This document shows positions 11 to 30,189 of a stretch of 39,299 nt of DNA, in pieces; the stretch's first letter is position 1, and the number at the start of each line of letters is the position of its first letter. A program made the translations under genes and the position numbers. This DNA is from a virus: IMG/VR virus record IMGVR_UViG_3300044691_000263, positions 1 to 39,299 of that record; one strand, 5' to 3'. The notes beneath the pieces are model-generated. The model ran no database searches. It worked only from the letters and a program-made list of their open reading frames with translations, and was not told where the DNA came from.

Positions 11-1294
11 TTAGGCAGCCGACGCGACTTCGATGTTCCGCACAGCCAGCTCGGGATAAGCGAGCACGGCGCCGACAATCGAATCGAGACGAGCCGGGAG
101 CACGTCGTTAGACGGATCCCACTGTTGTGCGAAGCGGATGTTGTACCCTTCGAACGCTTCCGCAGCCGTCATCTTGACGAGGGGGCTGAGGTCGAGCATT
201 GGGGGGTTCGCAAACACAATCGCGTCCCGGTACCAGCCGAGTGACTGCTTGATCAACGCACCGTTCAAGGATGCGATAGCAGCTGCACCGCTCTGACCGA
301 AGACGCTGATAACCGCGCCGGAGGCCGGAACGTTGTCCACGTTCTGGTACGCGCCGCCAGTGATGATGCCAGGAGCAATCGGGATGGCAATCGCGCCAGT
401 GGTGTCACTGATGGTCGCGGTCACAACGAACTGCTTGGGTCGGCCCAGGGACGCCTTCGTCTCGGGATCGACTTCGTTCACGCCCGCGATGCTGATCACG
501 TCGCCAGCGTTCAGGGTGGTGGCACCCGAAGCCCAGCCGTTGGTGTTCAACGTGAAGGTGGAAACGAACGCGTTGCCCGCGCCGGGGTTCGATTGACCGG
601 CACCGTTCACAACGGGAGCAGCGGTCGTGCTGAACGATCCGATGACGTGCGTAGGGAGCTTCGTGTTACGGAAGCAGACGTAGCCAGCGGCCTTATCAGC
701 GATCACGCCCTCCAACCATTGGTCTGATACGACAGACTCGGGGTTGAAGAGGCCCTTGTTGTCACGGACGAAATACCGCGAAGTTTGCGGGGTCGCCGTG
801 AACGTGCGACGGTCATCTTCAGGAGCCAAGGCTTCCGTCAGATACTGTTCGTTCTGCAACAGTTGATCATAGGTCGCTGTGGTGTTGAAGGCGCCCGTGA
901 ACTTCGGAACGTTGTTGACTTGACCCGTAGTGAAGTTCTCGATGCCGGCCGCCAGACGCGCCATGGCAGGTTCGAGCACTTGCTCTTCGAAGTTGTTCAG
1001 CAACATAGCGCGCTCCACCGAAGTGAAGTTGATGTCGACACCGAGCTGTTGGTTGACCAACAGGGTGGCGAAACGCTGTACCGAGTTCTGTGCATTCATC
1101 TGCGGGCCAGTACGCAGAGTGTACTGGAACGGCAGACGGATCGAGAGCTGTTGACCCAAGATGACTCCATTGATGGGGCCGGGCAGCAAGCTCTGGTAGT
1201 CACGGTTCGTGCGACCCGTGAAGTTGCTCTTGGCGTGCAGCAAGACAAGCGCCTTGCGTGCGACCCATTGAGCGGTTATTAGTGAGTTAGCCAT
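11..1294 (-). CDS. Major capsid (coat) protein, P22 coat-like
   Basis: This 427-residue protein is the main shell subunit of the icosahedral head. Its length matches P22 coat protein (about 430 residues). The N-terminus (MANSLITAQWVARKAL) and the following segments with NFTGRTNRDYQ and LPFQYTLRTGP fit the P22 coat family as I recall it; no alignment was run. A Gly/Ala/Thr-rich central part (about residues 215-345) would correspond to the inserted domain of this family. It sits directly after the scaffold gene, the normal order for P22-like heads, and is the last gene visible on this strand. Family assignment is from pattern recognition and gene order. Confidence 0.85.
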   Translation of the reverse strand: MANSLITAQWVARKALVLLHAKSNFTGRTNRDYQSLLPGPINGVILGQQLSIRLPFQYTLRTGPQMNAQNSVQRFATLLVNQQLGVDINFTSVERAMLLNNFEEQVLEPAMARLAAGIENFTTGQVNNVPKFTGAFNTTATYDQLLQNEQYLTEALAPEDDRRTFTATPQTSRYFVRDNKGLFNPESVVSDQWLEGVIADKAAGYVCFRNTKLPTHVIGSFSTTAAPVVNGAGQSNPGAGNAFVSTFTLNTNGWASGATTLNAGDVISIAGVNEVDPETKASLGRPKQFVVTATISDTTGAIAIPIAPGIITGGAYQNVDNVPASGAVISVFGQSGAAAIASLNGALIKQSLGWYRDAIVFANPPMLDLSPLVKMTAAEAFEGYNIRFAQQWDPSNDVLPARLDSIVGAVLAYPELAVRNIEVASAA

Positions 1295-1311
1295 TTATTC
1301 CTTTCCGATTT

Positions 1312-2529
1312 TTAGTTCAGTCCACGCTGCTTTCGCGCGTTCTCGCGGACTGACTGTTTGCTTCCCCTGTGCCGACGAGCGAATTCTTCCATTGACATGT
1401 TAGGGTCAACGACATCTCGTTCGTTTGCACGGCCGCCGGCCACTGTGGCCCGCGGCGGAGGAGGCGCCTGAGTGATGGACTTCTTTTGCCCTGGTTGCGC
1501 ATCGGGCTGAGAGCCTTTTCCATTCTGCTTTGACTTAGAAGCGACACGATCTTCGTTTTCAATCTCTGCGATCATCCTACCGATGGTGATAAGTTGCTGG
1601 GCTGGAGACTGCTTAGCCGTGCGAATCGCAAGGGCAGTATCCTTACCGAACTTATACAACAATCGGGCAGTGTGCTCGGATTGAGCGACAGCGACACCGG
1701 CATCAAACGCCAGCTGATTAGCAGCCAGCACCGGGTTCTTTGTCACGACCGCTGCGTAATCGGGAGTCGCTTTAGCGAACTTCTCGATCTTCTCTTCGAC
1801 TACTGCGCGGCGCCGTGCCGCTTCATCTGCACCAGTCATCTCGCGAACAATCTCGCGAGCAGCGATCTTAGCCTGGTCTCGTGACCACTTCTGCATCTTG
1901 GCTCGATACTTGTCGTTATCGAAGGCGATGTCCGCGTCGGCTAGATCCGGCATAGGTTCATCTTCAATAACAGGAGGAGCGGCAGCCGCGGTAGTCTGTG
2001 CAACGGTAGGTTTACCGCCGCCTTTCAACCGCTCCAGCTCGGACAACGCGTCCTTAAGCTGGCTCTGCATGTGCTTGCCAAATATCTTTGTGCCTTCGAG
2101 CAGATCATTCAGCTCTACTATGCGTTCCTCAGCAGATCCTTTCTTCGGAGCTGGCCGGGCAGGTTTCGCCTCGTCGTCACCCTGACCGCCAGTCAAATCC
2201 GTATTAGGGTCCGTTTCATCGCTGAGATCGACGGATGCGGTGGACGGGTCCGCTCCTTCGTCCGAAGTCCCCTCACCCGAATCGGTCGGGTCGCCGAGTG
2301 TTCCGTCTTCGTCAACGATGGGGGCATCTTCGTCGACCAACGGATCCGAGGCTGCGGCTGCAGCACTGCCTCCCGGAGTGGCATCAACTTGGCCCGCGGC
2401 GACCGCAGCTACTGCGGCGGCGTCGGCGGCGCGGGCGGGGGTGGCGCCGCGAAACGGATTGACTTTGTCGTCAATCTTCTTCGGCGTCTGCTTTTCATAC
2501 TGTTCCAAATCATCACGAGTAAAGGCCAT
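1312..2529 (-). CDS. Capsid scaffolding protein (probable)
   Basis: This 405-residue, acidic, low-complexity protein lies between the portal region and the coat gene, where P22-like phages encode scaffold. Residues about 40-130 are rich in Asp, Glu, Ala, Gly and Ser. A helical region follows (about 130-320: EERIVELNDLLEGTKIFGKH, QSQLKDALSELERLKGG). The C-terminus is basic (RRHRGSKQSVRENARKQRG), as expected for a scaffold that docks onto coat through a basic helix-loop-helix. The start ATG at 2529 follows an AGGAG ribosome site. The role is inferred from position, composition and the basic tail, not from a recognised domain. Confidence 0.7.
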   Translation of the reverse strand: MAFTRDDLEQYEKQTPKKIDDKVNPFRGATPARAADAAAVAAVAAGQVDATPGGSAAAAASDPLVDEDAPIVDEDGTLGDPTDSGEGTSDEGADPSTASVDLSDETDPNTDLTGGQGDDEAKPARPAPKKGSAEERIVELNDLLEGTKIFGKHMQSQLKDALSELERLKGGGKPTVAQTTAAAAPPVIEDEPMPDLADADIAFDNDKYRAKMQKWSRDQAKIAAREIVREMTGADEAARRRAVVEEKIEKFAKATPDYAAVVTKNPVLAANQLAFDAGVAVAQSEHTARLLYKFGKDTALAIRTAKQSPAQQLITIGRMIAEIENEDRVASKSKQNGKGSQPDAQPGQKKSITQAPPPPRATVAGGRANERDVVDPNMSMEEFARRHRGSKQSVRENARKQRGLN

Positions 2530-2587
2530 GATTGTCTCCTAATTACACGGCATGCGCTGCCGCGAGGCGGTTTCACCAGACAGTTAT

Positions 2588-3189
<602 letters not shown>

Positions 3190-3190
<1 letters not shown>

Positions 3191-5682
3191 TACGTAGCCT
3201 TTTTGGCAGGCTTCGATTTACGGGCCGCGGACGCTTTCGCTGCGGCCATTTCTTTCGCGTTCCTCAGATCGAGGGCGTGCTTCTCACGCGCCAGGTCCAT
3301 CTCCATATTGTGGCGGTCGTGGTTCAACGCTTTCTCATGCTCGAAGCGCTCGCGCTCTAACTTCATCTCGGATTCGTGCTGCTCACGTTCCATGCGGAAC
3401 TTCTCTTGAGCTGCCGCGCGATCTTTAATAGCGCCGAACACATGTTCCTGGTGCTCACGGACCATGTCCTGCGAGTGCTCGTGCTGAGCGTGGGTCGCAT
3501 CCTGTAGGTGGTTGACGTGCTTGGCGGCAAGATCCATCTGCGCCGACTGAGCGTCGGTCTGCGCCTGGCTGGCGTCAGACTTTATCTCTTGCGAGAGCTT
3601 GATGTTAGCCAGATGCTTATTAGCCACCGTCGTCTTGATCTTCTCCTGTTCCATCGGGCCAGTCTCAGCACGAGACTTCGCGATGGCGGCATCAGCCGTC
3701 ATCTTTGCGGTCTTGCCCTGCAGCAGCTGCATATTAAGTTGTTGCGCTTGCTCCTGCATTTGTTGTTGCTGATTCTTCTGTGATCCGACGCCGGCCGCCT
3801 TTTCCTTCTCGGTCGGCTGAATGATGCCCTGCTGTATCAAAGGTATCCGCAGACGATTCGCCATCTCTTGTGCGTCAGGCGAGTCTATGTTCTTCGCTAT
3901 CAGGTCGGCGATAACAGGCGCGTTCTGCGGCATCGCTTCGGCGAATGAGATAAGCGTATCAAGCGCCTCCTGTCTAGCGGACTGGAAGCTCGGGCCGATG
4001 GTGACCTCAACGTCATATGAACCCTTCGAGAGGTCGTTCATGATATCGCCTGAATCGGGGTCTTCCTTGTTGACTTCGACCATCTTCTCGATACCATCGT
4101 GCCCAATAATGCGCACGACCCGCTCCGCGTCCATGACCGTCGGGATCATGTCAACGAACATTTCCCATGTCAGCTGCATCGCGGAGCTGAAGCCATCAAT
4201 GAACTCGAAGCTCCCCAGGTCGGAGCGCTTCGTGTGTTGTACTAGCGCCTTGCCAGAGACGCGGTTCATATCTTCCGAGTTGCCGAGCGCGGGGTCGAAA
4301 TACCCTATCGTGGCTTGGATGTCCTGAATAGACATCTGAGCGAGGGCCATTGCGCCCTGCGGCAGGTCGAGCGGCGGCGTACGGAACGGCATGCCGCCCT
4401 CCGCGTTCTTGTCGACGTTATACGGTAAATACGGACGCGAGGCGACGTTCGCCTGGTTCCATTCATTCTCGTACCCCTTGATCATGGCTTCGGTAACGAG
4501 ATAAGGCGCCTTCGGTAGCAGCGCGCTGCGCTCGATCATATCCGAGGCGCGGGAGTTGTAACTACGCTGTGCGTCTTTGGAGTGACGAATCAACGATTGG
4601 AATTTCTTACGGCCTTCGATATTGATGTAGCGGCCGGGGCAGCGTATGACTGGGATACGCTTCCAGTCATAATAATACGGCCCTTCGAGAATGTTCGATC
4701 CGTCTACCTTTACCCACATGACCTGCCATTTAACAGTCCGGCGAGTCATCAGTTCGCCGGTCTTCTTGTTTGTAGCGATGCGGGTGACGCCGCTCTTTTC
4801 GAACGTGAGGCCGTGCTCGTCGAGGTGACTCTCGGTGGCCTTAAGGTCGGCGTCGTACTCGCGCACGGTGCCGTCGGTCATCTTCGCGATCCACTTCTCG
4901 CGCGGTACGCGCTCAAAGTATTCAGCGATACGGACCTCTTCGTCAGTGAACCAGCCGTAGCTGTCCCGCGATATATTGAAGCTGGAGCGGTTGCCGCGGG
5001 GGTTATCACCTGTGGTGTACAGCTGATCATATATATCGTTAGAGATCCGCTCCGCTACGATACAGCGATTAGCGTCGCCTGCGCACGAGTCGGCGCACTG
5101 CGGATCCCAGACCACCGTCTGCGGATTGGCGACGGTGATCACGCGCAGCACCTGATCAAACGAGCCTTCGCCATCATCCTGCATGTAGGTTGGCATGATG
5201 CGCCATGCGCCGAATCCGCCAGCCACCGCGAACTTGAACTGCTCTTTATAGATCTGATCCGCGCGGCTGGACTTCTCGATATCGCGGCAGAGGCCACCGA
5301 AGATGTCCGAGATCGCTTCGGATGCGCCGTCAGAGGCGGGCCGGACCTTGCCGGCGGGGCGCGTCTGGCGCATGTCGGCCACCACCATGTTCACCGGCTG
5401 CAGGCAGCGGTTGAACGTATAGCACGGCTTGCCGCGCCGATTCTGTAGCACGACCGGATCCCACTGACCCATCGCCTCCGCATTGTAGATGAAGTTCAGA
5501 TCTTCAGAATGCATCCGACGATTCTCTTCCCATGCGCCGACGCCCTCGTCATGGAAATGAATGATGCGCGACATCAGCGCACCCTCGTCCTCGATCTGGA
5601 AGCCAGGAGAATTAGGGAACGTGCCGCGCTGTCCGGGCACGTCCCCAATTAAATCCCAGTTGTCGCCTGAATTGCCGGTCAT
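3190..5682 (-). CDS. Portal protein, P22-like
   Basis: This 830-residue protein is predicted to form the dodecameric ring at the DNA-entry vertex and to dock the terminase. Recognised portal-like features include DLNFIYNAEAMGQWDP near residue 60, RGKPCYTFNRCLQPVNMV near 85, and the conserved central region IEGRKKFQSLIRHSKDAQR. From about residue 640 the protein becomes Gln/Lys/Glu/His-rich and probably coiled coil (RMEREQHESEMKLERERFEH), ending in a basic tail. It is longer than P22 portal (about 725 residues), mostly from this C-terminal helical part, which in P22 forms the barrel. Its ATG follows immediately after the stop of the 163-residue gene upstream. Confidence 0.85.
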
Positions 5683-6174: not shown

Positions 6175-6386
6175 TTTGGTCTCACCCCTTTCACGCTAGC
6201 GCGTGCGATTAAAAAATTTATCATCTCGTCGCAGCGACCTTTCAGCGACTCCATCATCTGATTGATGCAGCGCTGGTCTTTATATCCAAAGAACCACAAT
6301 TTCCTGCCGCTCACGTCTACCAACAAAAACACGCCTTGACGGCGGAACTGATACTCAACTACGTGGATCGGCGTCACCCGCTCCAT
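6171..6386 (-). CDS. Small hypothetical protein after terminase
   Basis: This is a 71-residue protein beginning MERVTPIHVVEYQF if the ATG at 6386 is used. That start overlaps the end of the terminase nuclease gene by 13 bases, and a longer upstream start is less likely because it would lie deeper in terminase. The sequence alternates short beta-like segments (VFLLVDVSGRKLWFFGYK) with a C-terminal helix containing two cysteines. No family was recognised. The stop overlaps the next ATG as ATGA. Confidence 0.6.
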   Translation of the reverse strand: MERVTPIHVVEYQFRRQGVFLLVDVSGRKLWFFGYKDQRCINQMMESLKGRCDEMINFLIARASVKGVRPK

Positions 6387-7159
6387 ACGCCGCCCTGTGT
6401 CGCCATCTCCGGCGCCCACTGGAACCAGGGCAAGCCGCCATCGCTTGAAGGCGGCGCCTTAGCCACATCGTAGCCGCTCATCACGTTGTAGCGTGTGGCG
6501 TCCATTAAGTGATCGTTCTTTTTTATTATGTTCCCCTTCTCATCGCGGCGGTACAGGCGCACTTCTTTGCGCCAGTTCTGCAGCGTGTTGAATATACGTA
6601 GCTGCTGTGTCGAGAGCATGTCCCAAGTTTGAATCAATCCGGTCACGACAGTGTTGTCTGCCTTACTGACTTTTAACCCAAGATTGCAATACGTGTCGAT
6701 CAACAATTCACCATCTGTACCGCGCGCTTTTTGCGCGGCTGGGTCGATGACGCCGTTTATCCATCTACCGCGACGGTTGATAGCTGCGACGTGAACGGCC
6801 GGGTCCGCCTGCCCGCGATAGTATTCGTCATACGCCACCGCCGGATAGCGCTGGTTGCCGACGGCGTCTTTGAAGCCGTTATCGATGTCCCAGGCGAACC
6901 AGATTACCGCGGTGCAGTTCCAGCCCGGATCCATTCCATACGAGCGCGGCCAGTGCGGCGGTATATCGAATGGCTGAATCAGCATCACATCTTCCGGTAT
7001 CGGATAAATAGCGCCGACGCCGTGTCCCGGTATACCAGACTTACGCGCCTGCAACTGCCATGGCGGGACGCTGGCTAAGATCTTCTTTTTTTCGATGTCG
7101 CTCAAGTGTGGTACGTCATCCATATCAAGGAACACCGCTGACTTGCCTGACTTACTCAT
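6374..7159 (-). CDS. Terminase large subunit, nuclease half (separate frame)
   Basis: This 261-residue reading frame encodes the C-terminal, RNase H-fold nuclease domain of a TerL that cuts concatemeric DNA during packaging. Visible candidate metal ligands are Asp77 (YGMDPGWNCTAVIW), Asp139 (NGVIDPAAQK) and Asp216/Asp220 (KKNDHLMDATRY). The opening segment FLDMDDVPHLSDIEKKKIL is normally the region just after the ATPase domain in one continuous TerL. Here it starts at its own ATG, overlapping the end of the ATPase gene by 8 bases (ATGAGTAA) in another frame. The two products together (299+261) match a normal TerL length. Two interacting polypeptides, a frameshift product or a mutated gene are all possible. 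Confidence 0.85.
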   Translation of the reverse strand: MSKSGKSAVFLDMDDVPHLSDIEKKKILASVPPWQLQARKSGIPGHGVGAIYPIPEDVMLIQPFDIPPHWPRSYGMDPGWNCTAVIWFAWDIDNGFKDAVGNQRYPAVAYDEYYRGQADPAVHVAAINRRGRWINGVIDPAAQKARGTDGELLIDTYCNLGLKVSKADNTVVTGLIQTWDMLSTQQLRIFNTLQNWRKEVRLYRRDEKGNIIKKNDHLMDATRYNVMSGYDVAKAPPSSDGGLPWFQWAPEMATQGGVWSG

Positions 7160-8051
7160 CGACGACCGCCTCTTCTTCCTCCAAGTCCCACGATTCAGTC
7201 GGCGCAGCGTCCGGCTCGGGTGACAGGTCAGGCATAAAGGTAATCATTAAATCGGACACCCCGAGTAATGGGGTCTCCGTCAGAATCAGCGTGCCGTTCT
7301 TCTCGCCTGGCACGGTGCTCATGAGTCGCATGTTGCACTCGGCGTAGATTTCCAGCTTCGGCTCTTCGTCTAAGTGGATTCTATCTTGTCGCGTGCCTTG
7401 AAAGGCTTCGCGACCTTGATCGTACGACTTAAACTGTAGCGTCGACAGTCCGCCAGATACGTGACGCACGTAAACAGATTCGAACGCGTCAGCTAGGCCG
7501 TGCTTCACCGTCCGTCGCACCAATAAGTCGCCAGGTATCATCCCGGTACCGTATTTATGTTCGATTCCGGGCTGCCCGCAGAACTTTTCTTGCAAAATGT
7601 CGCGCGTGTTCTTCGCGGTGTCTGTCGCCACCCACATACTAATGGGTCTATTAAATCTTCGGCCCGGCCACCAGTCAGGATACAGCCCGGTGAGATGCAG
7701 CGCGTCCGCGAAACAGCCGCAGTGAGTCTTACCAGTGCGATTTCCGCCAAATAGCGCGATCTCGTCATCAGTCTGCTCTAACTCGAAGAATTTCATCTGC
7801 TTCGGATAGTGCGCTCGACCCAATGGGCAGTTTTTTAATGCCGGATGGTCAGACGAGTCCTGAAACCAAGTCACTATTTGGGTCTGATCCTGTATCTTCG
7901 CTCTGTCGCTCAGGATCCTGACCAGTTTGTTCGACTCCTGCAGGCTCAACGAGCTGATATTCTGCTTCCTCAATAACGTCGTAAGAGACGTCGGGAGAGG
8001 GGAGTAGACCCTGTCTATCAAATCTTGATAGGAGGTGGGTAATTTGGTCAT
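7152..8051 (-). CDS. Terminase large subunit, ATPase half (separate frame)
   Basis: This 299-residue protein carries the DNA-packaging motor ATPase. The Walker A motif is FGGNRTGKTH at residues 101-110 and the Walker B with catalytic glutamate is RIHLDEEP at about 224-231. The segment HYPKQMKFFELEQ ahead of Walker A is typical of this family. It stops after an acidic linker (SWDLEEEEAVVDE), exactly where the nuclease domain should begin; the nuclease is encoded in the next frame at 6374-7159. The N-terminal 67 codons overlap the C-terminal coding part of the upstream gene by 203 bases, so the true start could be internal, although residues from about 35 onward look family-like. Confidence 0.85.
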   Translation of the reverse strand: MTKLPTSYQDLIDRVYSPLPTSLTTLLRKQNISSLSLQESNKLVRILSDRAKIQDQTQIVTWFQDSSDHPALKNCPLGRAHYPKQMKFFELEQTDDEIALFGGNRTGKTHCGCFADALHLTGLYPDWWPGRRFNRPISMWVATDTAKNTRDILQEKFCGQPGIEHKYGTGMIPGDLLVRRTVKHGLADAFESVYVRHVSGGLSTLQFKSYDQGREAFQGTRQDRIHLDEEPKLEIYAECNMRLMSTVPGEKNGTLILTETPLLGVSDLMITFMPDLSPEPDAAPTESWDLEEEEAVVDE

Positions 8052-8949
8052 GTGCCTGTTCCAGTGAAAGGTTTTGAGTCACTTTGAGATCCATTTTCAG
8101 GTTCTCGCCAAACTTTTCCGGGAAAAAGTTAGCCGCGATCCGTCCGAGCATGCGCGCGTCACCCTTCGTAGCGGCGGCGGACGCCGCGTGGTCGAAAACC
8201 ATGCGCGCTATGTTGTTCGCGTCGTCAAAGCCCCTCTGAAATTCTCCGTTCTCAGACAGTTCCTTGTGGAACTGCACATTGGTAGCGCCGACCGAGCGCA
8301 GTGCCTGCTTAACGTCCGCCGTGTTGGCATACGTTATCAGGAAAGCCTGCTTCTTCTCTTCGGTCCAGTCGAAGTCTACTGTTATCTGCTGCGTCCGGGC
8401 GGTGCCGATACTCTCTTCGAGGCGGTTCACCGCGTCGCGGAAGGTCTCGTTCCAGCTCAAGATCGCCAAAAACTCTGCCTCACTGCGACCGCACGCCTCA
8501 GCGGCTTGTGTGAAGTCTTTCAGCTCCGCGTACTTCGTTAGAAAGTTGCGCTCTGCCGCGTTCGGTGGCGCCGGGCCAGTGATGGCGGCGGTGTTCTTCT
8601 GCGTGTAGTTACGGCGCCGCGCTGCCTCCAGCTCCGGGACTCCCTTACCATAGACCGGAAGCTGGCCTTTCTCAACGCGTATGCAGTCGACGCACATGCT
8701 GGCGTTCGCGACGTATCGCGCGGCGCGGTGCCCGGTGACGCACAGCTCGCCGGTCCAGAAGTGTTTCCAGCCGCGCGCCTTAGCTTCGTCTTTTGAAACG
8801 AACCGCGTCGGCTGGTAGCTGTAAAGGTCCGGTTTGTCATCGCGCAGTGGCGCGACGGTCGACGGATCGATCTTGGGCCACTTCCCCCACGGGTGCTTGG
8901 GCTGGCCGGGGATCTTCTCGTCGGTCTTGCCATACAGCTGAGGCCTCAT
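7849..8949 (-). CDS. Terminase small subunit-like protein (probable)
   Basis: This is a 366-residue protein immediately upstream of large terminase, the usual place of the DNA-recognition subunit. Residues about 130-250 contain repeated helical segments resembling helix-turn-helix units (FLTKYAELKDFTQAAEACGR; FLITYANTADVKQALRSVGA), each followed by a similar helix. This resembles small terminases that use tandem helix-turn-helix modules. A segment near residues 70-90 holds a CVDC pair and could bind zinc. The ATG at 8949 overlaps the upstream stop as ATGA; a TTG at 8961 is an alternative. The C-terminus overlaps TerL by 203 bases. Function is inferred from context and helix-turn-helix-like repeats. 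Confidence 0.65.
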   Translation of the reverse strand: MRPQLYGKTDEKIPGQPKHPWGKWPKIDPSTVAPLRDDKPDLYSYQPTRFVSKDEAKARGWKHFWTGELCVTGHRAARYVANASMCVDCIRVEKGQLPVYGKGVPELEAARRRNYTQKNTAAITGPAPPNAAERNFLTKYAELKDFTQAAEACGRSEAEFLAILSWNETFRDAVNRLEESIGTARTQQITVDFDWTEEKKQAFLITYANTADVKQALRSVGATNVQFHKELSENGEFQRGFDDANNIARMVFDHAASAAATKGDARMLGRIAANFFPEKFGENLKMDLKVTQNLSLEQAHDQITHLLSRFDRQGLLPSPDVSYDVIEEAEYQLVEPAGVEQTGQDPERQSEDTGSDPNSDLVSGLV

Positions 8950-9488
8950 GCGCGATGCCAATCCTCTGCGCCAGACATAAAGTTCCCTTTACGGTCGTAG
9001 CCAGCACTCTGTTGGAACATAAGGCACTCGTTCAGCGACTCATCGGGGTCGATGGAGTAAATAGCCTGCTGCCAGATCATCGCCAGCTCGCCGATCCCGG
9101 GGAACCCGACCCTGTCAAAGTCGATGATCGTGATGTTGCGAAACGAAAACTCCACAACATCTCCCGGCTTAACGGTCATCGGAATGATCGAGCCCGTCTC
9201 CGCACCGTCCTCGAACCACAGCGTACGGCCAGAGAGCCTACTCTTCGAGAACTTCATGATCTTGCCGTCCGGCCCGATGGTGGGTGCGCCCGCGTCCATC
9301 TCTTGCTTGAAGGCGGTCTTGCGCCGCTGCCGGCGGCCGTAGCCTACCGCAATCACGACGCCTTTGTGTATCTCAACACCTGGCGTCAATAGCGTTGGGT
9401 GCACGTACGGCAGCACTTTCAGCAGAACGCGGTCCCTAAGAATGTGGACGCGCTGCGCGACGTCTTCAAGCTCCGGCGTGAGGATCAT
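8946..9488 (-). CDS. GroES-like co-chaperonin homolog 1 (divergent, with insertion)
   Basis: This 180-residue protein has the framework of a chaperonin-10 fold. It shows LRDRVLLKVLPYV near the N-terminus, then HKGVVIAVGYGRR, equivalent to the GroES RGEVVAVGPG strand, and later VKPGDVVEFSFRNITIIDFD, equivalent to VGDRVLF followed by the C-terminal strands. Between these is an insertion of about 45 residues, and about 40 extra residues follow. It is translationally coupled (ATGA) to a shorter, more canonical GroES-like gene upstream. A role as a GroEL partner is inferred. The mobile loop that contacts GroEL is not obviously conserved, so another function of the fold is possible. Confidence 0.65.
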   Translation of the reverse strand: MILTPELEDVAQRVHILRDRVLLKVLPYVHPTLLTPGVEIHKGVVIAVGYGRRQRRKTAFKQEMDAGAPTIGPDGKIMKFSKSRLSGRTLWFEDGAETGSIIPMTVKPGDVVEFSFRNITIIDFDRVGFPGIGELAMIWQQAIYSIDPDESLNECLMFQQSAGYDRKGNFMSGAEDWHRA

Positions 9489-9775
9489 GCCATTTCCACG
9501 CAATCGATATCAGAATCTCGCATGATACGTATCGCTTTGCCGACACCGTACTGGCTATCCATTCCGGCGGTGGCCGCGAAGGTGACCCGGTCACCTACGC
9601 TGCACTCCATAGGAGCGCGCTCGCCGAGCGGGAGCATCCGTCCGGGCCCGACCGCGACGACTTCGCCGCGCAGGATCCGCTGCCAATCTGGCAACAGAAC
9701 TTTCCCCTCAGCCTTATCCAGGAGCGCCACCGCCACCAGGTCGTTCATCAGTTTCTGTCGAAATTCAAGAGCCAT
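9485..9775 (-). CDS. GroES-like co-chaperonin homolog 2
   Basis: This 96-residue protein has the length and strand order of GroES: NDLVAVALLDKAEGKVLLPD, then ILRGEVVAVGPGRMLPLGER, then CSVGDRVTFAATAGMD and the ending IRIMRDSDIDCVEMA. In bacterial GroES these correspond to DRV(V/L)VK, RGEVVAVGPGR, VGDRVLF and the DDI-type C-terminus. Phage co-chaperonins such as T4 gp31 replace or assist host GroES for folding the capsid protein by GroEL; an analogous role here is an inference. The mobile-loop region is short. The gene has an AGG-type ribosome site, follows a virion-type gene and overlaps homolog 1 by 4 bases. No GroEL gene is in the window. Confidence 0.8.
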   Translation of the reverse strand: MALEFRQKLMNDLVAVALLDKAEGKVLLPDWQRILRGEVVAVGPGRMLPLGERAPMECSVGDRVTFAATAGMDSQYGVGKAIRIMRDSDIDCVEMA

Positions 9776-16440: not shown

Positions 16441-16515
16441 TGGCTGGAGAAGTTGGGATCGAACCAACGACCTAACCGTTAACAGCGGTTCGCTCTACCT
16501 CTGAGCTATACTCCA
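16441..16515 (-). tRNA. tRNA-Asn (anticodon GTT)
   Basis: This 75-base cloverleaf is on the minus strand, with the 3' CCA encoded. The anticodon stem AACCG/CGGTT encloses loop CTGTTAA, giving anticodon GTT. The T arm GTTGG-TTCGATC-CCAAC and D arm GCTC/GAGC are intact. The acceptor stem pairs except for one T-T mismatch at its sixth position, and the discriminator base is G, as in bacterial tRNA-Asn. It lies inside the late operon between the SRG-motif genes and the protease region and overlaps the end of a 51-codon reading frame. It may support translation of the Asn-rich structural proteins. Confidence 0.9.
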
Positions 16516-16627
16516 GAAAATCAAACCACGCCCATGCCTCTGTGCCAGGGTACTCCCGAGCTATTGCGTAGGCGCGGGACCCGTTCAGTACCCGGCTCTC
16601 GAACTCAGCTAAGAACTTTTCGGTCAT
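16472..16627 (-). CDS. Small ORF overlapping the tRNA gene
   Basis: This 51-residue reading frame starts MTEKFLAEFESRVLNGSRAY. Its ATG overlaps the protease stop codon as ATGA, the same coupling used throughout this operon, which supports it being translated. Its last 14 or so codons (LEYSSEVERTAVNG) lie within the tRNA-Asn sequence, so the two overlap by 44 bases. No family is recognised. The helix-like first half and Trp-rich middle (EAWAWFDFLEY) are protein-like, but the overlap with a tRNA makes it less certain. Confidence 0.5.
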   Translation of the reverse strand: MTEKFLAEFESRVLNGSRAYAIAREYPGTEAWAWFDFLEYSSEVERTAVNG

Positions 16628-17256
16628 CACGGCGGCGTGACCCCCATCATGCTGTACTGGAGCGGCGTAAACTCAAGCGGGTACGCGCCCATCAATCGGA
16701 AGACCAGTCCCTGGTGCGGGTGCGTGCTGATGTAGCTCATGACACCGATCACCTTGCCGGATGCGTCGAATATGCCGGCGCCGCTGTCTCCAAAGAATCC
16801 ATTGACGTCCATCACCATCTCAGAGTGATGATAGCTCGTAACGTAACCTTCGCGATATACGTTGTTGATCTTCGCCGGGTTGCCCCAGTAATGCACGGGC
16901 GCGCCGACCGCGGGCCGCTGCCCTAGCTGAGCATGATCTTTAAAAACGAAGATCACCTTCACCAAGGCGTGGTCAGCGTCGTCGAAAACTATTGCTTCGA
17001 TGTATACTTTGTAACCGTCCACCAAAATCGAAGTCGGCGCGGCAGCGGGCGGGATCCTGGACCCCAGCTCGTTCTCTTCTTCCTCGAAGCAGTGCGCGGC
17101 GGAGAGAATTACGCTCGGCGCCACCACTGTGCCGGAGCACGTTGCGCCGTCGATAGTCAGCCGCGCGGTTGCCGGCGAGGGGTCCGCGGCGGTAGCGGCG
17201 CGAGCTAGCGCGACAATCATCAGGACACAAAGAAACAGACGCCCTAGAAATTTCAT
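16627..17256 (-). CDS. Exported trypsin-like (S1) serine protease
   Basis: This 209-residue protein has an N-terminal signal peptide (MKFLGRLFLCVLMIVALARA, likely cleaved after ATA) and a chymotrypsin-fold protease domain. The catalytic triad is visible: His55 in LSAAHCF, Asp95 in DADHALVKV, and Ser158 in FFGDSGAGIF. Cys40 and Cys56 could form the usual disulfide near the His. The predicted site of action is the periplasm or outside the cell. The start at 17256 is preferred because it gives proper spacing from GGGAG and overlaps the upstream stop as ATGA. It lies in the late operon, unusual company for a secreted protease; a role in lysis, host envelope modification or protein processing is speculation. 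Confidence 0.8.
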   Translation of the reverse strand: MKFLGRLFLCVLMIVALARAATAADPSPATARLTIDGATCSGTVVAPSVILSAAHCFEEEENELGSRIPPAAAPTSILVDGYKVYIEAIVFDDADHALVKVIFVFKDHAQLGQRPAVGAPVHYWGNPAKINNVYREGYVTSYHHSEMVMDVNGFFGDSGAGIFDASGKVIGVMSYISTHPHQGLVFRLMGAYPLEFTPLQYSMMGVTPP

Positions 17257-17402
17257 CGGCATTCACTCCCGACGCGCACCTTTATGCCGAACGCCTTCAT
17301 GTGGATCAAGTTCTCATGGAGCATCGTGATCAGACAGTACGCTGTCTTCCAGCGTCGTGCCGACTCGCTCCACACCTGAAATTTAAGCCGAGAGGTGCTC
17401 AT
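17253..17402 (-). CDS. Small hypothetical protein
   Basis: This is a 49-residue frame starting MSTSRLKFQVWSESARRWKT at ATG 17402, overlapping the upstream gene by 20 bases and the protease ATG by 4 bases. It is basic, with two cysteines and no membrane segment. The coupled overlaps on both sides are the main support. The ribosome site is weak. No family is recognised. Confidence 0.45.
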   Translation of the reverse strand: MSTSRLKFQVWSESARRWKTAYCLITMLHENLIHMKAFGIKVRVGSECR

Positions 17403-29300: not shown

Positions 29301-29653
29301 TTGTCCTGGTAACTGGCGGACACTCGTTCAGCGACCGTGACAAATTCAACGACGTCATGGATAGCATACACCGCGCGCAGCCGCTTGAGGCGGTGATACA
29401 CGGCGCCGCCTCTGGCGCTGACACGCTGGCAAATCTGTGGGCGTTCTCTCGCGGCGTGCAGCCGGTAGCGTGCCCCGCGCTATGGGACTACCACGGGAAG
29501 CGGGCCGGCGGGAAGCGTAACCGGGCGATGCTGTTGCTGCGGCCCGACCTGGTAATAGCGTTCCCCGGCGGCCGAGGTACCAACGACATGGTCAACACCG
29601 CTCGTGAACAGCTTTTCAGAGTGTTCGACTACCGGCACCTGGATCTGGTATGA
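29297..29653 (+). CDS. SLOG-superfamily (DUF2493/YspA-like) protein
   Basis: This is a 118-residue Rossmann-like protein. Motifs are [18 protein letters not shown] at the start, [20 protein letters not shown] (nucleotide-binding GxxxGAD loop), [20 protein letters not shown] and a final GGRGTNDMV. These match the DprA/LDcluster-like SLOG fold proteins often seen in phages, thought to bind nucleotides or related ligands. Its ligand is unknown. It overlaps the recombinase start as ATGA, so it may be functionally paired with it. Confidence 0.75.
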
Positions 29654-30189
29654 AGACTGCAGTTGCTTATACCCGGGTCAGTACGGCCGAGCAGGGCCGG
29701 TCCGGTCTAGGGCTGGAGGCGCAGCGAGCCGCCATCGAGGTATTCGCGGAGCGTGAAGGGATAGCCATCCAGGCGTGGTACAGCGAGTGCCAGTCAGGGA
29801 AGCGCATCTCCGACACCCTAGCGGAGCGGCCCCAGCTCCGCGCCGCGCTGGAGGCCTCTAAGGCGCTCCCAGGGCCGGTCCTGGTGTCCAAATTAGATCG
29901 TCTCAGCCGCGATGTGCACTTTATAAGCGGACTTATCGTGCATAAGGTCCATTTTATGGTGGCGGAGCTGGGGCCAGATGTCGACACGTTCACGCTCCAC
30001 TTGTGGGCCGCACTCGCTGAAAAAGAGCGCGCGATGATATCGCAGCGCACAAAGGCCGCCCTGGCCGCCCTCAAGGCTCGGGGCGTGAAGCTGGGACCGA
30101 AGCGCCCGAACCCCACCGCCGGCAACGAAGCGAACCGCTTGAAGTGGGAACGGATCCGTGCTAGTATGGCAACGTCAACTGAAACTTAG
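29650..30189 (+). CDS. Serine recombinase (resolvase/invertase catalytic domain, lacking typical HTH)
   Basis: This 179-residue protein has the resolvase catalytic core. The nucleophile Ser11 is in [10 protein letters not shown]; other conserved features are [30 protein letters not shown] and the E-helix region [20 protein letters not shown]. After [10 protein letters not shown], where a C-terminal helix-turn-helix usually begins, only about 35 residues remain, without a recognisable helix-turn-helix. It may resolve dimers or invert a segment with a partner, or be a degenerate protein. No recombination sites were identified. A promoter for the next gene lies in its 3' coding end. Confidence 0.8.
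30139..30167 (+). promoter_or_regulatory. Putative promoter inside recombinase 3' end
   Basis: TTGAAG (30139-30144), 17 bases, TAGTAT (30162-30167), 31 bases before the next ATG with a TTAGGAGCTGAAA ribosome site. The -10 TAGTAT is identical to that of promoter cassette copy 2. Confidence 0.5.

What the first reader, a model, noticed from the sequence alone, without database searches (positions are those of the whole stretch)
8946..9775. Two consecutive GroES-like co-chaperonin genes without GroEL
A 96-residue GroES-like gene and a 180-residue divergent one overlap by 4 bases. T4 gp31 shows that a phage co-chaperonin can redirect host GroEL to capsid folding. Two in tandem may build a mixed ring or serve different clients. 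The divergent copy has a large insertion and an extra C-terminal region.
Basis: partly seen in the sequence, partly recalled or inferred. Interest (0 to 1): 0.75.

Follow-up and report, generated by a model that had tools for sequence, protein, structure and literature searches.

The report
Paired phage chaperonin-lid proteins
Uncultured phages with a P22-type head carry, next to their head-building genes, two different versions of the small "lid" protein (GroES) that closes the bacterial folding machine GroEL; the two genes travel as a pair and are fused in one lineage, so they probably form one mixed lid that helps the phage coat protein fold.

Summary
P1 (window 9485-9775, minus strand, 96 aa) passes the Pfam Cpn10 cut-off. 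P2 (8946-9488, minus, 180 aa) overlaps it by ATGA. P2 scores below the Pfam cut-off, but its divergent relatives and its AF2 fold lead to GroES. P2 is a GroES barrel with an enlarged roof hairpin that opens with a conserved basic stretch (GRRQRRK), a degenerate mobile loop, and a conserved 33-residue C-terminal tail. The pair is ancient and linked: all 63 distinct P2 sequences with room upstream have P1, and 72 of 75 P1-scan loci have P2 (the other 3 are generic GroES). One lineage fuses both into one ~262-267-aa protein. Both genes are under purifying selection. No GroEL was found in the window or 12 relatives up to 61 kb. The pair sits at a fixed place: P1-P2-(TerS-like)-TerL-portal-scaffold-P22-type coat. 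Unrelated P22-portal phages carry one GroES gene in the same neighbourhood. Best reading: P1 docks on host GroEL; P2 joins the same ring and modifies the roof for head-protein folding. The mixed ring is inferred, not shown. Chloroplast Cpn10/Cpn20 lids are the closest precedent. Verdict: new variant of a known kind.

The parts
9485..9775 (-). P1: 96-aa GroES/Cpn10 co-chaperonin
   Evidence: Pfam Cpn10 40.7 bits over the 21.1 cut-off; PHROG 3188; AF2 pLDDT 82; Foldseek top hits all Cpn10/GroES
9683..9700 (-). P1 mobile-loop motif VLLPDW (aa 26-31), corresponding to the GroEL-binding IVL(P)-type edge of GroES; IKLPDW in most relatives
   Evidence: 56 relatives tallied: 43 IKLPDW, 5 VLLPDW, 3 ILLPDW, others single; GroEL binding inferred from GroES
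8946..9488 (-). P2: 180-aa divergent Cpn10-fold protein
   Evidence: Foldseek to PDB: all top 27 hits Cpn10-fold, probability 0.80-1.00; Cpn10 profile 17.7 bits, below cut-off; divergent relative L122 46.0 bits against a phage-GroES profile across the whole domain
9485..9488 (-). ATGA overlap of P1 stop and P2 start
   Evidence: sequence; the same 4-base overlap in 39 of 60 relatives measured
9363..9413 (-). P2 mobile-loop region (aa 26-42), motif HPTLLTPG; only the middle Leu and following TPG are well kept
   Evidence: 63 relatives tallied: TLA, TLL, ILA, TLE, TLV etc. followed by TPG in most; AF2 pLDDT about 51 in this block
9318..9338 (-). P2 basic start of the roof hairpin, GRRQRRK (aa 51-57)
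   Evidence: RRQRRK in 49 of 65 relatives tallied, the rest close variants; lowest pN/pS of the P2 regions, 0.10
9225..9317 (-). P2 roof insertion (about aa 58-88), variable in length and sequence
   Evidence: alignment A1: short or missing in L039, L046; pN/pS 0.42, the highest of the P2 regions
8949..9047 (-). P2 C-terminal extension (aa 148-180) with SAGxDRxGNxMSGxE-type motif
   Evidence: found in 67 relatives; absent from GroES; not confidently modelled; partly lost in distant L289
9783..9786 (-). possible Shine-Dalgarno GAGG upstream of P1
   Evidence: sequence reading only
7849..8961 (-). downstream gene with an HTH-like look, likely small terminase (370-aa open frame; true start not settled)
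   Evidence: conserved in position and frame in relatives; PHROG 1081; TerS role inferred from position
6374..8051 (-). large terminase as two genes: ATPase 7152-8051, nuclease 6374-7159
   Evidence: Pfam Terminase_6N and Terminase_6C
11..5682 (-). P22-type head genes: portal 3190-5682, scaffold-like 1312-2529, coat 11-1294
   Evidence: Pfam P22_portal E 1.8e-145, P22_CoatProtein E 3e-24; PHROG scaffolding

Best explanation
The phage makes two Cpn10-fold subunits for one purpose. P1 is a near-canonical co-chaperonin whose mobile loop binds host GroEL. P2 is an old Cpn10-fold partner that has given up part of the GroEL-contact motif and gained a long, basic roof hairpin and a C-terminal tail. 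Translated together at the ATGA junction, the two assemble into a mixed seven-subunit lid in which P1 supplies most of the GroEL grip and P2 shapes or charges the roof of the chamber. The likely client is the P22-type coat protein (possibly another head protein). Shown: Cpn10 fold of both (prediction and profiles), strict pairing, purifying selection, fusion in one lineage, head-gene context, no GroEL gene in the records. Inferred: GroEL binding, mixed ring, roof function, client.
For: Cpn10 membership of P1 and fold of both. P2 relatives L122/L123 align to a phage-GroES profile over its whole length, with the extra residues exactly in the roof. All 63 distinct P2 sequences with room upstream have P1; none lacks it; reciprocal scan 72 of 75, the three exceptions being generic GroES. 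Natural in-frame P1-P2 fusion in L283 and L285 (267 and 262 aa; 93% identical DNA with a length difference that keeps the frame). P1 loop motif kept, P2 loop degenerate, with Glu in 8 of 63. Chloroplast precedent: Cpn20 has two tandem GroES-like domains and subunits that are inactive alone work in mixed oligomers; at least four functional loops of seven are needed to bind GroEL (PMC4242682, PMC5780408). Gene order P1-P2-TerS-TerL-portal-scaffold-coat conserved; P22-type coat in 11 of 12 relatives; 10 of 50 long GroES-bearing viral records have a strong P22 portal, each with GroES within about 0-2.8 kb of it, and in L209 GroES follows the P22-type coat.
Against: No multimer or complex was modelled. 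The P2 model is only of medium confidence (pLDDT 68.8, pTM 0.54) from a shallow alignment. Direct profile-profile comparison of P1 and P2 found only a 20-column match. Fusion is seen in one lineage only; a fusion also occurs for proteins that merely share a pathway. A 1:1 fusion does not divide evenly into a seven-fold ring (chloroplast Cpn20 has the same problem). Some members separate P1 and P2 by up to 390 bases. The host is unknown, so its GroEL and GroES could not be examined.
Confidence: 0.5

Rival explanations
1. P1 and P2 form two separate homo-heptameric lids, as GroES and gp31 do in T4-infected cells, each for other clients or another time of infection.
For: P2 keeps the whole barrel and a flexible loop at the mobile-loop place. 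Two separate lids exist elsewhere: Bdellovibrio groES1/groES2 (PMC3464611) and two unlinked GroES-like genes in jumbo phage CBB (PMC5259590). Rumen phages carry an independent tandem in which both proteins keep a canonical loop.
Against: Fusion and translational coupling favour equal supply of both in one complex. The P2 loop lacks the canonical hydrophobic-x-Leu-Pro edge and sometimes has Glu at the third place.
Confidence: 0.25
2. P2 is a Cpn10-fold protein put to a new use that no longer involves GroEL: an assembly factor or minor virion protein of the head or portal, perhaps contacting nucleic acid, scaffold or terminase through its basic hairpin and tail.
For: The most constrained parts of P2 are not the GroEL loop but GRRQRRK and the C-terminal tail. 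Its gene is next to the packaging genes. Mobile-loop motif degenerate.
Against: The gene never occurs without P1 and fuses with it, which ties it to the co-chaperonin. The loop region is still strongly constrained (pN/pS 0.15).
Confidence: 0.2
3. An ordinary duplication of a phage GroES gene; P2 is drifting and has no distinct role.
For: Gene duplicates are common; P2 is the more divergent copy.
Against: P2 is under at least as strong purifying selection as P1 and is kept across relatives down to about 37-45% identity with its own invariant motifs.
Confidence: 0.04

Closest known systems
Bacterial GroES / Pfam PF00166 Cpn10
   Same: P1 matches along positions 18-92 of 93; barrel fold, mobile-loop motif, size
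   Different: P1 loop about 5 residues shorter than in E. coli GroES; P2 below the family cut-off, with roof insertion and C-terminal tail
T4 gp31
   Same: phage-coded Cpn10-fold protein without a phage GroEL, linked to the capsid; Foldseek hit 1g31 for both proteins
   Different: gp31 is a single gene, has a longer mobile loop and no roof loops, and gives a cage about 8% larger (PMC6318259); here two genes, shorter loops, and one subunit with a larger roof
Chloroplast co-chaperonins Cpn10 / Cpn20 (Arabidopsis, Chlamydomonas CPN11/20/23)
   Same: different Cpn10-fold subunits used with one chaperonin; Cpn20 carries two tandem domains like the fused P1-P2 of L283/L285; members differ in roof and mobile loops (PMC4242682, PMC5780408)
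   Different: plant organelle; mixed oligomers shown by experiment there, only inferred here; Cpn20 domains lack the P2-type tail
Bdellovibrio groES1/groES2 and jumbo phage CBB's two GroES-like ORFs
   Same: two GroES-type proteins in one genome (PMC3464611, PMC5259590)
   Different: genes unlinked, not fused, and without the P2 architecture; proposed as alternative lids
Single GroES genes of marine podophages (HTVC023P-type pelagiphages, Roseobacter CHAB-I-5 phages) and of the P22-portal contigs found here (L202, L206, L172, L209 and others)
   Same: GroES as a core gene of small phages (PMC9599517, PMC10149686); beside the head genes in the contigs found here
   Different: one GroES gene only; no P2

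Membership tests
Cpn10/GroES (P1) | Cpn10 profile match over the curated cut-off | tested here: met
   40.7 bits versus 21.1
Cpn10/GroES (P1) | GroES beta-barrel fold | tested here: met
   AF2 pLDDT 82; Foldseek probability 1.00, TM 0.67-0.80 to GroES chains
Cpn10/GroES (P1) | mobile loop with GroEL-contact hydrophobic motif | tested here: met
   [IV]xLPDW in nearly all relatives; binding itself not tested
Cpn10/GroES (P1, P2) | heptameric ring that binds GroEL | not testable with these tools
   no multimer prediction available; both single-chain jobs used
Cpn10/GroES (P2) | Cpn10 profile match over the curated cut-off | tested here: not met
   17.7 bits versus 21.1
Cpn10/GroES (P2) | GroES beta-barrel fold | tested here: met
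   top 27 Foldseek hits all Cpn10-fold, TM by target 0.30-0.80; model of medium confidence
Cpn10/GroES (P2) | sequence homology through intermediate relatives | tested here: met
   L122 P2 46.0 bits over positions 1-51 and 47-91 of a phage-GroES profile
Cpn10/GroES (P2) | canonical mobile-loop contact motif | tested here: not met
   xL[LAVEI]TPG instead of [IV]x[LIM]P
gp31-type phage co-chaperonin | phage Cpn10 without phage GroEL, linked to capsid folding | tested here: inconclusive
   no GroEL and head-gene context; client not tested
gp31-type phage co-chaperonin | longer mobile loop and missing roof loop that enlarge the cage | tested here: not met
   loops shorter than in E. coli GroES; P2 roof enlarged
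Mixed (hetero-oligomeric) co-chaperonin, Cpn10/Cpn20-like | obligate genetic pairing or fused tandem domains | tested here: met
   63 of 63 and 72 of 75 pairing; fusion in L283/L285
Mixed (hetero-oligomeric) co-chaperonin, Cpn10/Cpn20-like | physical mixed ring active with the chaperonin | not testable with these tools
   needs biochemistry or multimer modelling

The most novel reading that the evidence does not exclude
An obligate two-component phage lid: a heteromeric Cpn10 ring in which one subunit grips host GroEL and the other, no longer GroEL-binding, supplies a basic, enlarged roof and an outward tail that adapt the chamber or hand the folded coat to the assembling P22-type head.
Probability: 0.35. 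Interest if true: 0.75.

Novelty: new variant of a known kind. Interest (0 to 1): 0.58.

Why it matters
Phage co-chaperonins are known mainly from T4 gp31 and relatives, all single genes. A conserved, sometimes fused pair would be, as far as the held literature shows, the first phage example of a mixed lid, so far known from chloroplasts. It would give a minimal natural system to ask what the roof of the GroEL-GroES chamber does, and how many loop-bearing subunits of seven are needed. The side result that environmental P22-portal phages repeatedly keep a GroES gene beside the head genes makes the coat-folding link testable in several lineages.

Tried and rejected
Nucleotide search of window 1-25000 in cultured phages: no match; P2 and its divergent relative L122 have no significant relative there (the E 0.5 hits to vB_KvM-Eowyn were not followed). 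Host assignment: only one genome contig carries P2, in a Solirubrobacterales bog MAG; 298 other genomes of its class had none, so a phage contig co-binned with the MAG is as likely as a true host link, and no host is claimed. Origin of P2 from P1 by duplication: the tree puts each in its own well-supported group and cannot settle whether they are sisters (few columns, one row mis-cut). Direct P1-P2 profile comparison was weak. Promoters and terminators near the pair were at shuffle level. The idea that the pair enlarges the cage as gp31 does was dropped, because the loops are shorter and the coat is small enough for a normal cage. An overlapping 131-aa frame at 8538-8933 was rejected in favour of the conserved frame 7849-8961. 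A set of GroES loci from generic patterns is not a random sample, so the P22-portal association has no formal enrichment test.

Full report
What is there. On the minus strand two genes follow each other: P1 at 9485-9775 (96 aa) and P2 at 8946-9488 (180 aa), sharing ATGA. The window is a whole 39,299-base viral record without terminal repeats, probably a fragment; relatives reach about 61 kb.

P1 is a GroES. It passes the Pfam Cpn10 cut-off, matches PHROG 3188, resembles Thermus, E. coli and other GroES chains in the PDB by sequence, and its predicted fold (pLDDT 82) finds only GroES/Cpn10 at the top. Its mobile loop carries [IV]xLPDW in nearly every relative, the counterpart of the GroES edge that binds GroEL.

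P2 is a GroES-fold protein with additions. The single sequence falls below the Pfam cut-off (17.7 of 21.1 bits) and phmmer finds no PDB relative. Three independent lines overcome that. First, in many relatives the Cpn10 profile hits P2 in two pieces, either side of an insertion. Second, divergent relatives (L122, L123) match a phage-GroES profile made here over its whole length, the break falling in the roof loop (the E-values there are for small sets, so bits count: 46.0 for L122). Third, the AF2 model (pLDDT 68.8) finds 27 Cpn10-fold chains first, 1wnr, 4pj1, 1p3h, 1aon and gp31 among them, and then only noise. The additions are: a short N-terminal helix, an elongated roof hairpin beginning with GRRQRRK (aa 51-57) followed by a variable insert (aa 58-88), and a conserved tail (aa 148-180). 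Constraint by region: pN/pS 0.10 for the basic stretch, 0.15 for the mobile-loop region, 0.17 for the tail, 0.42 for the insert.

The pair is a unit. Of 71 distinct P2 sequences, 63 have P1 upstream and 8 end at the contig edge; none lacks it. The ATGA overlap occurs in 39 of 60; a few have gaps of 28-390 bases. A reciprocal scan with the P1 profile gave 75 loci; 72 have P2 and the three others are generic GroES genes. In L283 (54,968-base contig) and L285 (10,161-base contig of another metagenome) P1 and P2 form a single open frame of 267 and 262 aa, with both domains matched strongly. The two regions are 93% identical and differ in length by a whole number of codons, which argues against a sequencing frameshift. 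Both genes are under purifying selection. Each family is one group in a tree, and the deepest members already have both, so the pair is older than the sampled group.

Context. Upstream lie putative virion and fibre genes; downstream come a TerS-like gene, a terminase split in ATPase and nuclease genes, portal, scaffold-like and coat genes of P22 type. The order is conserved in relatives, and a P22-type coat is found in 11 of 12 relatives checked. No GroEL is present in the 13 records of the group first searched, nor in three further distant ones. In a set of viral GroES loci collected with a generic GroES alignment, 10 of 50 long records carry a strong P22-type portal, and in each GroES lies within about 0-2.8 kb of it: GroES-TerS-like-TerL-portal in L206 (as in the window), between TerL and portal in L202, directly after the P22-type coat in L209. 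None of these has a P2-like second gene. So a GroES gene beside a P22-type head module recurs, and this group adds P2.

How it most likely works. Host GroEL provides the cage. P1 grips GroEL through its loop (inferred from GroES). P2 has a loop of similar place but with a degenerate contact motif (xL[LAVEI]TPG; Glu in 8 of 63), so it is unlikely to be a good lid alone. Chloroplast work shows that co-chaperonin subunits inactive alone can work in mixed rings, that tandem-domain Cpn20 exists, and that at least four working loops of seven suffice for GroEL binding (PMC4242682). A lid with about four P1 and three P2 would satisfy that. The P2 roof would then place seven-fold or partial basic hairpins over the chamber, and its tail outside. 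The client is most simply the 427-aa P22-type coat. GroEL-dependence of P22 coat folding is known to me from the literature, but I could not read that paper here. A larger cage as for gp23 (56 kDa, PMC6318259) is not needed for a coat of about 47 kDa.

Rivals. Two separate lids (0.25), a repurposed assembly or virion protein (0.2), and idle duplication (0.04) are laid out in the fields above. The first needs P2 alone to cap GroEL. The second is favoured by the strong constraint on the basic stretch and tail, but not by the strict pairing and fusion.

Novelty. Two GroES-type proteins in one genome are known (Bdellovibrio, PMC3464611; jumbo phage CBB, PMC5259590), single GroES genes in podophages are known (PMC9599517, PMC10149686), and mixed lids are known in chloroplasts. 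I found no description of a tandem, obligately paired or fused co-chaperonin in phages (open-access library only). I therefore call it a new variant of a known kind.

Limits.

Noticed in passing
window 6374-8051 (minus): The large terminase is coded as two genes, ATPase (7152-8051) and nuclease (6374-7159), overlapping by 8 bases; the split is kept in all relatives, and in L013 and L025 some 440-500 bases lie between the parts.
   Followed up: partly
L110 7456-9258, L111 7432-8991: The ATPase part of the terminase is interrupted by roughly 0.8-1 kb of extra DNA after about residue 105-110, possibly an intron or intein with endonuclease.
   Followed up: no
L053 5959-6569; L210-L218 around 3650-4315: An unrelated phage group (contigs up to 184 kb, probably rumen) has its own tandem of two GroES-like genes, both with canonical mobile loops and no GroEL in the records searched.
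   Followed up: partly
L179 3551-4658 (contig 3300020044_010116): A 288-aa protein with a clear Cpn10 domain (aa 105-190) and probably one or two more repeats lies directly before a GroES gene, with a GroEL gene on the same 15-kb contig.
   Followed up: partly
L010, L020, L024, L026, L037 (P1 C-termini): Some P1 proteins have a 20-30-aa C-terminal extension ending in a motif like RxIERQTELxPL.
   Followed up: no
window 16627-17262 (minus): Trypsin-like protease gene (Pfam Trypsin_2, E 3e-11; PHROG 9683), away from the coat and scaffold genes.
   Followed up: no
window 16441-16515 (minus): A tRNA-Asn (GTT) gene.
   Followed up: no
window 29650-30189 (plus): Serine resolvase N-terminal domain protein in the early-gene arm.
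   Followed up: no
L063 (PLES01000005.1): The only cellular-genome contig with P1 and P2 is a phage-like contig in a Solirubrobacterales bog MAG; a weak hint at an actinobacterial host.
   Followed up: partly
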